Origin: Thermosphaera aggregans
GTDB taxonomy: Archaea; Thermoproteota; Thermoprotei_A; Sulfolobales; Desulfurococcaceae
Direction: 5' to 3'
Assembly: GCF_014962245.1 (NCBI RefSeq)
Contig: NZ_CP063144.1
Coordinates: 238,582-302,581, forward strand
DNA: 64,000 nucleotides
Shown: positions 4,329 to 41,959 of the stretch, piece after piece
Position numbering within the stretch: position 1 is the stretch's first letter
Layout of the letters: each line of letters starts with the position of its first letter
Notes under the pieces: model-generated
Told to the model about the DNA's origin: nothing
Databases searched by the model: none
The model's input: only the letters and a program-made list of their open reading frames with translations
Translations under genes and position numbers: made by a program

Positions 4329-4434
4329 GGGCCGGTAGCTCAGCCTGGAAGAGCGCCGCCCTTGCATGGCCTAAGGGGGCGCTACCGAGGTCGAGGAGAG
4401 GCGGAGGACCCGGGTTCAAATCCCGGCCGGTCCA
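4329..4434 (+). tRNA. tRNA-Ala (UGC) with 32-nt intron
   Basis: The acceptor stem GGGCCGG (4329-4335) pairs with CCGGTCC (4427-4433), discriminator A at 4434. The D arm is GCTC/GAGC, the anticodon stem CCGCC/GGCGG, and the T arm CCGGG-TTCAAAT-CCCGG. The anticodon TGC is at 4363-4365. A 32-nt insertion (4367-4398) after position 37 is the canonical archaeal intron site, expected to be cut by the splicing endonuclease at a bulge-helix-bulge. CCA is not encoded. TATA-like ATTTAAAAC lies about 30 bp upstream (4292-4300). Confidence 0.95.
4367..4398 (+). other. tRNA-Ala intron (position 37/38)
   Basis: Removing these 32 bases restores a 7-nt anticodon loop CTTGCAA flanked by a perfect 5-bp stem. 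The intron contains a short GC-rich self-complementary stretch. Exact ends could shift by one base because T4367 and A4399 are alternative loop residues. Confidence 0.8.
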
Positions 4435-4764: not shown

Positions 4765-4867
4765 TCTCCCACCATGTTAATACTAGTCAACCCTGTATAA
4801 TAAATATTTCTATTAAGATTTAAACCATTAATTTGGGATTAACCATAGTGATGAACGGTGGTGCAGG

Positions 4868-5383
4868 ATCAGGATTTACGCTATAATATATTATGAGGAT
4901 GACCCAGTTAAAAACACAGCGCTGAAAATGGTTAAAGCAGGGCTGGCAAGGCTTGTTGACCACGGTTTCGCAAGGCGGGGGCTAGTCGTGCTGGATCCTT
5001 TCAGCCCTGAATACCTAGGGCCCTGGGACAGGGGGCTGGTCGAGGAGAAGGGCGTCCTTGTCTTGGACGCTAGCTGGAGGCTTCTAACCCCTGATAAGTT
5101 TAAAAAACTCCCCGGAGCCCACGTCAAGCTCCCGCCCCTCCTCCCCGGCAACCCTGTAAACTATGGGAAGCCCTGCATGCTGTCAAGCATTGAAGCCGTC
5201 GCAGCCGCAGCATACATAACAGGCTTCACGGAAACCTATGAGAAGCTCCTCGGCCTCTACAAGTGGATGAGCACCTTCCACAGCCTCAACACCGAGCTGC
5301 TGGAGTCGTGCTCGAAAGCAGGGAGCAGGGAGGAGCTGGTCAGGGTAATCCGGGAGTACTGGGGGGATAGCCCGCCATGCTAG
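4868..5383 (+). CDS. tsr3: Tsr3-type 16S/18S rRNA aminocarboxypropyltransferase (DUF367)
   Basis: Recognised as the Tsr3 family, which transfers the 3-amino-3-carboxypropyl group of SAM to a modified small-subunit rRNA base. Signatures: VVLDPFSPEYL, VLDASWRL, KLPPLLPGNPVNYGKP and LSSIEAVAAAAYITGF. The first ATG (4928) would remove a conserved first strand and the KNTALKMVKAGLARLV helix; the same frame reads RIRIYAIIYYEDDPVKN upstream of it. No ATG/GTG/TTG exists in frame before a stop. GGTG at 4857-4860 lies 7 nt before an in-frame ATC at 4868, taken here as the start. Alternatives are ATT 4874, or a 1-nt indel after GTG 4861. The gene ends 3 nt before RNase P RNA on the other strand. Confidence 0.8.
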   Translation: MRIYAIIYYEDDPVKNTALKMVKAGLARLVDHGFARRGLVVLDPFSPEYLGPWDRGLVEEKGVLVLDASWRLLTPDKFKKLPGAHVKLPPLLPGNPVNYGKPCMLSSIEAVAAAAYITGFTETYEKLLGLYKWMSTFHSLNTELLESCSKAGSREELVRVIREYWGDSPPC

Positions 5384-5385
5384 GA

Positions 5386-5700
5386 GGGGCCGGGCCGTAA
5401 CCCGCGTTCTGTTAAGCCCGTATTCGTCTAAGCGGCCTACACCGGTCGCGTGGCCCTCACACCGGGATCAGGCCTTGCACCGTGCGGGGCGGCCGTTTCA
5501 ACGCGTCCGCAACCGTCCTCAACGGTTTAAAACCCCCGTCACCAGGGGCCCGTCCGCATCATCGCCACCCAGCTGCGGCCGTACCGTTTCTGTGCCGTTG
5601 CCACGGGGACTACCCGTGCCCCTTACGGGGCCGCACTGCCACGGGGTGCGCGGAGTTTCCTCACCTCCAAACGGAGGCGTCAACGGGCCGCCCAGCCCCC
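5386..5700 (-). ncRNA. rnpB: RNase P RNA
   Basis: Catalytic RNA that removes tRNA 5' leaders. On the minus strand the RNA begins GGGGCUGGGC (5690-5699) and ends GCCCGGCCCC (5386-5395), giving a perfect 10-bp P1. The conserved core GAGGUGAGGAAACUCCGC lies near the 5' side, and the universal ACAGAA with a GGCUUA upstream pairing segment near the 3' side. About 315 nt, normal for an archaeal type A RNA. A TATA-like TTTATC (5717-5722 region) lies about 20 bp upstream. The 3' end abuts tsr3, so the two units converge. Confidence 0.95.
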
Positions 5701-11271: not shown

Positions 11272-12924
11272 TCACTCCTGGTTGAAAGCCTCGTCGAAGT
11301 CTAGGGTGGAGGTCTTCCTCCTCCTGGACTGGTATTCCTCAGGGGTTTTTTCCAACACTATCTCGTAGAGCCGGGCCTCCTCACCCCCTGGTTTCGGCCT
11401 CAGGAGTCTTCCAAGCCTCTGGATGAACTGCCTCCTTGAACCTGTGCCCGACACCATTACCCCTACGTTAGCGTCAGGTATGTCGAGGCCTTCATCCCCG
11501 ACCGTGGTGACCACGAGTATTCCCTTGGAGGCTGTTTTGAACTCTTCAAGTATTCTCTTACGCTCGAGCGGGGGGACTTCGCCTGTTAACAAGTATGCTC
11601 CAAGCCTTTTACTCAGCTCCTCCGCCTGCTCCACGTACTGGGTGAACACGATTATCTTACCGCCCTTCTCCAGCTCGCTCCGGGCTATTTCAACAGCCTT
11701 CTCCAGCTTGCTCTCCGACTTGGCTAGGAGCATTTTCATCTGGCTGTGTATTCTCAAAGCCTCCCTAGCCCTTTGATCACCTCTTAGCGCGTCCTCCAGC
11801 ACCTTCTTGAAATCCCTCCCGTTAGCCAGCTTGAAGTAGAGCTTCCTGAGAGAGTTGTACTGCTCGAGCTCATCCTTCTTCAACCCTACTTTAACGGTTA
11901 CGACGCGGTAGCGTGCCAGGAACCCTGTTGCAGCCAGCTCCGCGGGTGTTTTATGGTACACTATCCCTCCCAGCAGGGGGAACAGCTCCTCGTGCTTCCC
12001 ATCCTCCCTGTAAGGGGTTGCGGATAAGCCTAGCCTGTACTTGGCTATGCTGTGAACCGCGATGTGCTTGAACTTCTCCGCCGGGAGGTGGTGGACCTCG
12101 TCAACTATTAGGAGGTCGAACAAGGGGGAGATCTCGCTTATCACTCTGAAACCGCTCTGATAGGTTATAATGGTTATAGGGGCAAGCCTCTTCTCATCAC
12201 TGTACATGAGGCCGATCATTGACTGCGGGATGTTCGTCGATTTAACTATTACATCCCTCCACTGGAACATCTGCTCCCTGGTGTAGGTTATTATCAGGCT
12301 CCTCCTCCCGGTTAAAACAACCGCTGAAACCCCGATCAAAGTCTTCCCGGAGCCTGTTGGGAGGGCTACAATCCCCTGGTAGTTGTTGCTCCTCCACTTT
12401 TCCAGCGCCTCCTGCTGGTAGCTCCTGAGCGAGACGTTGACCAGCTCCGGCTTCAACGGGAGGAGCTTATCCTCGAGAAGCCTCCCAGGATCCCTAACCT
12501 CCAAGCCCAGCTCCGACAGCTTGGAGTAGGCGGTGTGCAGCTTGTAGGGCGGGATCCTGTAGACTATTCCAGTATCGCTGGACGCAGCCCTCCTAGCGCC
12601 CAGCTCGGAGAGGAATGCTCTTGCCTTGTTGAAAACAGGCCATGGAATGTACAGCTTAACATAGCCTGTGAGGCTGTCCCACTCCAGCACGGGGGTGTAG
12701 GGCTGGAAGGCAGCCTCCAGCTCGTCCAGGCTTCCCTCAAGCTCCAGCTGGTACTCTTTGATCAGCTCCACAACATCCCTGTACGAGTACCCGTTGCGGA
12801 CGGCTTTCTCAGGGTTGAGGATGAACCTTCTCTCACCTCCACCGCCGCCCTGGTACTCGGCAATCCTCAGTATTTCCCTGAAGGCTTCATCACTAATCCA
12901 TTTACGAGTCTTCAAAACTATCAT
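11272..12924 (-). CDS. xpb: XPB/Rad25-type DNA helicase
   Basis: SF2 helicase related to eukaryotic XPB, acting in DNA unwinding during repair and, in archaea, with the nuclease Bax1. Motif I LPTGSGKT (about 190), motif II VDEVHHL, motif III GLSATPYRED that includes the XPB-specific RED element, and motif VI QRLGRLLRPK. The N-terminal 160 residues form the damage-recognition-like domain. 550 residues. Start overlaps the end of the upstream gene (ATGA at 12921-12924), so they are translationally coupled. No Bax1 gene is seen in the window. Confidence 0.93.
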   Translation of the reverse strand: MIVLKTRKWISDEAFREILRIAEYQGGGGGERRFILNPEKAVRNGYSYRDVVELIKEYQLELEGSLDELEAAFQPYTPVLEWDSLTGYVKLYIPWPVFNKARAFLSELGARRAASSDTGIVYRIPPYKLHTAYSKLSELGLEVRDPGRLLEDKLLPLKPELVNVSLRSYQQEALEKWRSNNYQGIVALPTGSGKTLIGVSAVVLTGRRSLIITYTREQMFQWRDVIVKSTNIPQSMIGLMYSDEKRLAPITIITYQSGFRVISEISPLFDLLIVDEVHHLPAEKFKHIAVHSIAKYRLGLSATPYREDGKHEELFPLLGGIVYHKTPAELAATGFLARYRVVTVKVGLKKDELEQYNSLRKLYFKLANGRDFKKVLEDALRGDQRAREALRIHSQMKMLLAKSESKLEKAVEIARSELEKGGKIIVFTQYVEQAEELSKRLGAYLLTGEVPPLERKRILEEFKTASKGILVVTTVGDEGLDIPDANVGVMVSGTGSRRQFIQRLGRLLRPKPGGEEARLYEIVLEKTPEEYQSRRRKTSTLDFDEAFNQE

Positions 12925-13340
12925 GCCCCATCCTCCTCGAACAGCATCGCCTCCTCGGGCTCCGGGAGCTCCACGAAAGTGTTCGCAAGCCCCGTGTCCC
13001 TGCAGGCGAGCCCGTAGACACTGGGCCAGCTGCTCCTGCCGATGTAGAGTTCAACGCTTCCTCCAAAGCTCCGTATGGTCTCCGTGTATTTTAAAAACCA
13101 GGTTGTCTTCTCGTCGAGCGGTGTTTCAGGCGGGAGCTTTACCAGGAGACCCTCGGGCTCAACCATGTATGAATCGTTCACCAGGACCAGCCTCAGCAGG
13201 ATGCACAGGCTTATGCCGCTGCACTCCCCGCAGGCCTTTGCGTAGGTTCTCCCGAGGGCTAGGGCTTGCGACGCAGCCTCCTCCAGCAGGCCCCGGGGGA
13301 TCCCGAGCCTCAGCAGCTTCTCGTTGAAGACGAACTCTAT
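12921..13340 (-). CDS. Uncharacterised protein encoded upstream of xpb, apparent AUA start
   Basis: The frame encodes about 139 residues: a helical, Cys-containing N-terminus (ACGECSGISLCILL) then WFLKYTETIRSFGGSVELYIG and an acidic C-terminus. GTG 13181 is the first standard start but would discard a well-formed 53-residue N-terminus. Upstream of it the frame has no ATG/GTG/TTG before a TGA. GGTG at 13348-13351 lies exactly 7 nt before ATA (13340-13338), taken as the likely start. It is coupled to xpb by an ATGA overlap. Function unknown; a helicase partner role is only inferred from position. Confidence 0.6.
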   Translation of the reverse strand: MEFVFNEKLLRLGIPRGLLEEAASQALALGRTYAKACGECSGISLCILLRLVLVNDSYMVEPEGLLVKLPPETPLDEKTTWFLKYTETIRSFGGSVELYIGRSSWPSVYGLACRDTGLANTFVELPEPEEAMLFEEDGA

Positions 13341-13538
13341 GATTGTTCACCGCTCCATGTTTTCAAGACACTAGTACAGTATTAAAGCTGTTTATCCTTA
13401 AAGACCGTGGAGTGTTCAGAAGGAAGGTCGGCGCGTGGGTTTCTCCTCACCTATCAGTACTTAAAACCCCTCTCATCCCTGTGTATTTAAATTTTTATTT
13501 AAGTATTTTAAAAATACCTGATTAACCGTGGTGGTGTC

Positions 13539-40834: not shown

Positions 40835-41959
40835 TTATACGGGTTTTTGTGGGTTTACCAGGCTTAAGAGTAGTCTTGCAAGCTCCATGTCTTTCTGCGA
40901 GAGCTTGGAGTACACTAGCTCGTACACGAGCCTCCTAGTATCGTACTTCACGTATGAGAGCTGGTCAACGTAGTCGAGCGGTAGTGGGAACCCGGTGCTG
41001 CCGGTGATTCCTGAGAGCGCCGAAACTATTTTCTCCACGCTCCAGCTGGGTGCTTCCGCGATCTCTGTTTTCACAGCTAGATTAATTGTTTTCAAAGCAG
41101 GCTTGTAGAAGACTACTTTAACTCTGCCAACGTATCCTTTATACGCTCTAATTATTCTTCCAATCCATTCATATCTAGCCTGTATTCTCGAGGCAATGTT
41201 TTCATCGCTTACTTTATCCAGTATCTCTCTAATTTTCCGGTTAAACTCGTCGTAGAATTCTTTGTAAGTACCTATTGTAAAGTATTCGCCATGGTCTAGC
41301 ACTATGGAAGCGATCACCCTATCACTCAATCCAATATCGAAGAGTTCATGAATAATTCTAATATCGCCGGAGTAGCTCCTCTTTAAAACACCAATTAACG
41401 GTGTATCAGTCTCCCATGCTAGGTCGAGGGCTTCTCTCGTTAACTCTTCCGCCTTCTTCACGAGTTCACGGGCTTCGCTAGGGAGAGATGAATCCTCTTC
41501 TTCCCCATATCTCGTCAAGATCTCTCCATCCACTATCGCTATATCGAACTCCATCTGCCCATTCTTCTTATCCTTCAGTGCTTTCAAGAGGGCGTTGCGC
41601 TCATGGACTTTGGCTTGAACACCAGCTAAGTCTCTATCGCGGTGGTAGCTTACATATGCTTTAAGCGTTGGCGGGGTGTTGCATTTAACGCCCATTACTA
41701 TCTCTGCAACCTGTATAATCCAGATGTAGCCTCCTGCCACCTCTATGGGTGGGACAGTATAGCTTGAGTCAACAGCGTATGTGCAAGCCCCTCCACCGTG
41801 CTCGGGAAACTTCTTGATCAAGCCCTGACTGCTCAACTTCTCTCTAAGCTCGCGGGTTTTCCCAATGTTTCTAGCATTCTCGAGTATGTTATCAACCAGA
41901 TTATCGAGCTCCCCAGCTAGTATCTCAGGAACTACGCCTGCTTCTTCTTCAACGCTCAG
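40835..41959 (-). CDS. nurA: NurA 5'-3' nuclease, apparent CUG start
   Basis: Partner nuclease of HerA in DNA-end resection. The core has YAVDSSYT and IAIVDGEIL, the two acidic RNase H-like motifs, plus a Mn-binding C-terminal half. The first standard start (TTG 41836) would remove a 41-residue helical N-terminus typical of NurA. Upstream the frame reads VEEEAGVVPEILAGELDNLV with no ATG/GTG/TTG. A CTG (41959-41957) overlaps the HerA stop (CTGA) and has GGTG 8 nt upstream, so it is taken as the start (about 374 residues). Coupled to herA. Confidence 0.85.
   Translation of the reverse strand: MSVEEEAGVVPEILAGELDNLVDNILENARNIGKTRELREKLSSQGLIKKFPEHGGGACTYAVDSSYTVPPIEVAGGYIWIIQVAEIVMGVKCNTPPTLKAYVSYHRDRDLAGVQAKVHERNALLKALKDKKNGQMEFDIAIVDGEILTRYGEEEDSSLPSEARELVKKAEELTREALDLAWETDTPLIGVLKRSYSGDIRIIHELFDIGLSDRVIASIVLDHGEYFTIGTYKEFYDEFNRKIREILDKVSDENIASRIQARYEWIGRIIRAYKGYVGRVKVVFYKPALKTINLAVKTEIAEAPSWSVEKIVSALSGITGSTGFPLPLDYVDQLSYVKYDTRRLVYELVYSKLSQKDMELARLLLSLVNPQKPV

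What the first reader, a model, noticed from the sequence alone, without database searches (positions are those of the whole stretch)
4857..4930. Non-standard initiation in tsr3: GGTG then AUC, no AUG/GUG/UUG available
Seen: the Tsr3 frame extends 20 codons upstream of ATG 4928 with residues expected of the family, but no standard start occurs before the upstream stop. GGTG at 4857-4860 lies exactly 7 nt before in-frame ATC 4868, the spacing of normal genes here (for example TTG 27464 and ATG 60411). Two other genes in this window show the same pattern (13340 and 41959). Inference: translation may start at non-AUG codons when a strong GGTG box is present. Alternative: one-base indel after GTG 4861.
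Basis: partly seen in the sequence, partly recalled or inferred. Interest (0 to 1): 0.72.

Follow-up and report, generated by a model that had tools for sequence, protein, structure and literature searches.

The report
Archaeal gene starting at AUC codon
A ribosome-maturation gene (tsr3) in a heat-loving archaeon, like about 1% of the genes compared here and the ribosomal protein gene rpl12 of most of its family, appears to begin at a codon one letter away from AUG (AUC, AUA, ACG or CUG) placed at a fixed distance from a strong ribosome-binding box; this start-codon use is missing from the usual description of archaeal translation.

Summary
The tsr3 frame (4832-5383, +) has no ATG/GTG/TTG before ATG 4928, and GGTG 4857-4860 lies 7 nt before ATC 4868. 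The indel alternative is disfavoured: a second closed genome of the genus, aligned without gaps, also lacks a standard start (stop 4 codons upstream of ATC), and a third species has ATT there behind AGGAGG in the same register. Codons upstream of ATG 4928 change almost only at third positions and encode the family's EDDPxKNT motif; ATC aligns with Met1 of solved S. solfataricus Tsr3.

The explanation is more general than tsr3. Among 796 orthologue pairs of two congeners, about 11 (1.4%) start at AUC/AUU/AUA/ACG/CUG with a Shine-Dalgarno (SD) box at the normal register. rpl12, whose Met1 is universal, has AUC or AUA in 32 of 36 genomes of the family; all 18 such leaders without an in-frame alternative use exactly the same register. 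ATC for one rpl12 (Staphylothermus marinus) was noted in 2009; the clade-wide pattern, tsr3 and the others I found in no paper searched. Initiation at AUC is inferred by comparison, not proteomics. An infC-like feedback through Tsr3's P-site modification is possible but untested.

The parts
4818..4824 (+). TATA-like element (atttaaa), conserved in two congeners; implies a short leader that holds the SD box
   Evidence: sequence and 3-species alignment; inferred, no transcript data
4857..4863 (+). GGTGGTG: Shine-Dalgarno box; GGTG 4857-4860 is 7 nt from ATC, the genome's commonest spacing
   Evidence: 16S 3' end ATCACCTCCT read
4868..4870 (+). ATC: proposed start codon of tsr3 (ATC in G001, ATT in G002); aligns with Met1 of solved S. 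solfataricus Tsr3 (5AP8)
4868..5383 (+). tsr3 coding sequence, 171 codons (16S rRNA aminocarboxypropyltransferase)
4895..4918 (+). codons for the conserved EDDPVKNT motif, upstream of ATG 4928, so lost if translation began there
   Evidence: alignment of 19 orthologues
4928..4930 (+). first standard start codon; residue 21 of the family (conserved internal Met), not the start
12921..13340 (-). second case: protein of unknown function in front of an XPB-like helicase gene; GGTG 13351-13348, ATA 13340 at 7 nt (ATC 13343 at 4 nt); no standard start in three species
40835..41959 (-). third case: NurA-like gene downstream of a HerA-like ATPase gene; CTG 41959 overlaps the upstream stop (CTGA), GAGGTGA box; aligned TTG in G002
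   Evidence: first standard start 41 codons downstream

Best explanation
tsr3 of this Thermosphaera-like archaeon is translated from AUC at 4868. A strong Shine-Dalgarno duplex (GGUG with the 16S 3' end) places this near-cognate codon exactly in the P site, and the ordinary initiator tRNA (CAU) accepts it despite a third-position mismatch, so the protein probably still starts with Met. It is one of a small set (about 1-1.5% of genes) in this genus that begin at AUG-like codons (AUC, AUU, AUA, ACG, CUG), and belongs to the same habit as rpl12 of the Desulfurococcaceae, which starts at AUC or AUA in most species. Shown by sequence: absence of standard starts, coding constraint upstream of ATG 4928, fixed SD register, conservation. 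Inferred: initiation at AUC itself, decoding by tRNAi(CAU), Met as first residue.
For: G001 orthologue: 'tag CGG TGG TGT AGA ATC AGA ATT TAC', no ATG/GTG/TTG, no gap relative to the window. G002: ATT behind AGGAGG, same register 5. In the 22 codons before any standard start G000/G001 differ at codon positions 1/2/3 by 0/1/6. The EDDPxKNT motif lies there. ATC aligns with residue 1 of 5AP8. 78 of 79 readable other tsr3 loci have a usable standard start, so the method does not produce such cases freely. rpl12: AUC 17, AUA 15, AUG 4 in 36 genomes of the family; 18 of 18 AUH leaders without in-frame alternative have SD register exactly 5. GGTGGTGN4ATC occurs twice in all of G001: rpl12 and tsr3. 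Eight genes picked by coding signature: 8 of 8 codons at the SD register are one base from AUG, against 0-2 of 8 at neighbouring codons. The same inference is published for one rpl12: Smar_1096 appears to begin with an ATC start codon (PMC2678158).
Against: No peptide, ribosome-profiling or transcript-end data. In G002 an in-frame ATG lies 10 codons upstream and could be used as a leaderless start. tsr3 of other genera uses TTG/ATG, so AUC is not needed for function. The spacing optimum was used to choose among candidate codons in the genome-wide list, although the eight core genes were first selected on coding signature.
Confidence: 0.88

Rival explanations
1. Sequencing or assembly error: a single-base indel after GTG 4861 hides a normal GTG start.
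For: GTG codons at 4858 and 4861 are in a neighbouring frame.
Against: G001, a separate closed genome, aligns without gap here and also lacks a start; there GTG is followed by TAG. The GTGs are the SD box itself, with no SD of their own. rpl12 shows the same arrangement in dozens of genomes.
Confidence: 0.03
2. Translation starts at ATG 4928 and the upstream codons are not translated.
For: It is the first standard start, and annotation software would pick it.
Against: Loses the first beta strand and the invariant D11 D12 P13 K15 T17; upstream codons vary almost only at third positions; Met21 is a nearly invariant internal residue of the orthologues.
Confidence: 0.03
3. Recoding or re-initiation: ribosomes first translate a tiny upstream ORF at the 5' end (ATG AAT TAG in G001; ATG 4851 in the window; [A/G/T]TG xAG CGG TGA before gene 13340) and re-initiate at AUC/AUA next to its stop codon, or shift frame.
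For: A start codon is kept in three species three codons before the TGA of gene 13340; the CTG of gene 41959 overlaps a stop codon.
Against: tsr3's upstream ATG is not in the same place or frame in the two species; G002 lacks the mini-ORF in this form; rpl12 and others show the same SD register without a consistent mini-ORF. Frame shifting from GTG is excluded in G001 by the immediate TAG.
Confidence: 0.06

Closest known systems
rpl12 (L12ae, Smar_1096) of Staphylothermus marinus with ATC start (PMC2678158)
   Same: AUC start inferred from alignment, same family of archaea, same GAGGTGGTG box and register
   Different: That report concerns one gene in one species, without SD analysis, comparison or generality
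Bacterial near-cognate starts such as E. coli infC (AUU) (from memory)
   Same: third-position variant of AUG behind an SD box in a gene that affects the ribosome
   Different: infC is autoregulated through IF3; archaea lack IF3, and no regulation has been shown here
Standard archaeal SD-led initiation at AUG/GUG/UUG (review PMC7531240)
   Same: same SD box, same spacing, presumably same initiator tRNA
   Different: review names only AUG, GUG and UUG as start codons

Membership tests
Tsr3 (PF04034 / PRK02287) | match to the curated family model over its length | tested here: met
   PF04034 127 bits vs 29.9; PRK02287 187 vs 152, residues 2-167 on 3-169 of 171
Tsr3 (PF04034 / PRK02287) | N-terminal EDDPxKNT motif and invariant columns | tested here: met
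   present only if translation begins upstream of ATG 4928
Tsr3 (PF04034 / PRK02287) | aminocarboxypropyl transfer to the helix 31 nucleotide of 16S rRNA | not testable with these tools
   Nep1 (partner enzyme) is in the genome and the target uridine context GGAGTCAACGCC is in 16S
SD-led near-cognate start | no standard start between upstream stop and conserved N-terminus | tested here: met
   window and G001
SD-led near-cognate start | codon one base from AUG at the genome's SD register | tested here: met
   register 5 in all three species
SD-led near-cognate start | initiation at that codon in the cell | not testable with these tools
   needs N-terminal proteomics or ribosome profiling
infC-like autoregulation | expression from the non-AUG start depends on the gene's own product | not testable with these tools
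   only the structural link is documented: C34 of tRNAi stacks on m1acp3Psi930 in S. solfataricus (PMC11698992)

The most novel reading that the evidence does not exclude
The AUC/AUU start of tsr3 is a feedback sensor like that of bacterial infC. Tsr3 installs the acp3 group on the helix 31 nucleotide on which anticodon base C34 of the initiator tRNA stacks, and C34 is the base that must pair with the third start-codon position, the very position that is wrong in AUC/AUU. Ribosomes lacking the modification could then accept AUC more (or less) readily and adjust tsr3 output. rpl12, with AUC/AUA kept over a whole family, could be set by start-codon stringency in a similar way.
Probability: 0.1. 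Interest if true: 0.88.

Novelty: new variant of a known kind. Interest (0 to 1): 0.62.

Why it matters
Archaeal initiation is described as using AUG, GUG and UUG. If AUC, AUA, ACG and CUG are routine starts behind a precisely placed SD box, then gene annotation in Desulfurococcaceae misplaces or misses about 1% of N-termini, including a core ribosomal protein and several enzymes, and these archaea offer a natural system for how SD pairing offsets start-codon mismatch. The rpl12 case is striking because the stalk protein is needed in large amounts and yet keeps a supposedly weak start across a family, which suggests that the codon is either efficient in these ribosomes or under selection for regulation. 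Both are testable.

Tried and rejected
Indel/assembly error: rejected by G001. Start at ATG 4928: rejected. tsr3-specific peculiarity: rejected; the family-wide survey shows standard starts in 78 of 79 readable loci, while other genes in the genus share the pattern. A dedicated initiator tRNA reading AUC: none seen among 43 tRNA hits in the genome; the only Ile(GAU) tRNA looks elongator-like, and the initiator tRNA found at G000:588244 has anticodon CAU. A ribosome-biogenesis theme for all near-cognate genes: rejected, since the set includes endonuclease V, a pyrimidine-dimer glycosylase and an ABC ATPase. Plasmid search of the tsr3 locus gave nothing. The Tsr3 enzyme paper (PMC4872110) is not held.

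Full report
The observation. The tsr3 frame at 4832-5383 (+) is open from TAA 4829 and has no ATG, GTG or TTG before ATG 4928. GGTG 4857-4860 stands 7 nt before in-frame ATC 4868. The gene is Tsr3 by Pfam, NCBIfam and two solved structures. In the alignment of the window's protein with S. solfataricus Tsr3 (5AP8) residue 2 falls on residue 2, so ATC occupies the place of its residue 1.

Is the upstream part translated? Nineteen orthologues share invariant D11, D12, P13, K15 and T17 upstream of the residue coded by ATG 4928, which is residue 21. Between the window's genome (G000) and its congener G001 the codons before any standard start differ 0, 1 and 6 times at positions 1, 2 and 3. This is the mark of a translated, selected sequence.

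Is it an error? G001 has 1,316,595 bp in one contig, the size I recall for Thermosphaera aggregans. It aligns through the region without a gap and also lacks a standard start: 'tag CGG TGG TGT AGA ATC AGA ATT TAC'. The third species, G002, has ATT at the place, with AGGAGG in front; measured from the end of an ideal GGAGGTGAT box, all three species place the codon at spacing 5, the commonest register of normal genes. G002 differs by a 5-nt deletion and has an ATG ten codons upstream, in frame, without SD; a leaderless start there cannot be excluded for that species.

How unusual is it for tsr3? In a scan of GTDB genomes, 78 of 79 readable tsr3 loci had a standard start near the N-terminus. The exception is one Pyrodictiaceae assembly (L062, the same as L030), where GTA lies 7 nt after AGGTG; one further locus was cut by a contig end. 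So AUC/AUU in tsr3 is a trait of this genus.

How general is it? I compared 800 kb of G000 with 1.2 Mb of G001: 796 orthologue pairs. About 11 pairs lack a standard start in both genomes ahead of a conserved N-terminus and have a near-cognate codon at SD register 4-6: ATC in tsr3, rpl12 and a PIN-domain protein; ATA in gene 13340 and one unknown; ATC/ATT in an unknown that looks TFB-like; ACG in an ABC ATPase, a tRNA intron endonuclease, a pyrimidine-dimer glycosylase and an unknown; CTG in endonuclease V (families; the weaker members are the two unknowns at G000 612907 and 515103 and the PIN protein). For the eight chosen on coding signature, the codon at the SD register is one base from AUG in 8 of 8, against 0-2 of 8 at neighbouring positions. 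The window's other two cases fit: ATA 13340 is kept in three species; CTG 41959 aligns with TTG in G002.

rpl12 is the strongest support because its first residue is universal (MEYIYASLLLY). In 30 leaders read in full, the Met1 codon is ATC 11, ATA 11, ATG 6, GTG 1, ACG 1. Four AUH cases have an in-frame standard codon 1-3 codons upstream; the other 18 have none, and in all 18 the SD register is exactly 5. A pattern search over the class gives, in the window's family, ATC 17, ATA 15, ATG 4 and no ATT, with AUH also in other families and another order (my tally from the list, which was cut at its end; leaders of the genomes not were not read). In the whole of G001 the string GGTGGTGN4ATC occurs twice: rpl12 and tsr3.

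What is known. Anderson et al. 2009 wrote that S. marinus L12ae has no valid start codon and appears to begin with ATC (PMC2678158). A 2020 review of archaeal initiation names only AUG, GUG and UUG (PMC7531240). Ten literature searches found no account of the wider pattern, in an open-access library only.

Mechanism. The SD duplex fixes the mRNA so that the codon sits in the P site; the genome's initiator tRNA found has anticodon CAU, so AUC, AUA and AUU are read with a mismatch at position 3, ACG at position 2, CUG at position 1. Precise register and box strength presumably make up for this. In S. solfataricus C34 of the initiator tRNA, the base facing codon position 3, stacks on m1acp3Psi930, and Tsr3 makes the acp3 part (PMC11698992). 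Both the substrate context and Nep1 are present here. This makes an infC-like feedback conceivable for tsr3, but the variety of other near-cognate genes argues that general tolerance is the simpler reading.

Limits. All is comparative. No transcript ends, peptides or footprints were available.

Noticed in passing
window 5386-5699 (-): Archaeal RNase P RNA gene (Rfam RF00373) lies tail to tail with tsr3, 2 nt from its stop codon; similar sequence follows tsr3 in G001.
   Followed up: partly
window 4329-4434 (+): tRNA gene (Ala-like body, TGC) with an intron in the anticodon region; ARAGORN's default scan missed it.
   Followed up: partly
L309 (G000:C1:588244 onward): Initiator tRNA gene appears to be interrupted by two introns, one in front of the anticodon and one in the T arm; conserved in G001 (L308).
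   Followed up: no
L062 / L030 (Pyrodictiaceae assembly, tsr3): tsr3 without a standard start; GTA lies 7 nt after AGGTG, a third-position variant of GUG.
   Followed up: partly
window 13347-13358 (-): Mini-ORF [ATG/GTG/TTG]-xAG-CGG-TGA in front of gene 13340 keeps a start codon in three species, with its stop codon inside the SD box; might be a leaderless leader peptide.
   Followed up: no
G000:C1:202582-203001 (-), L043: Degenerate partial copy of the window's 41959 gene with two in-frame TAG codons.
   Followed up: no
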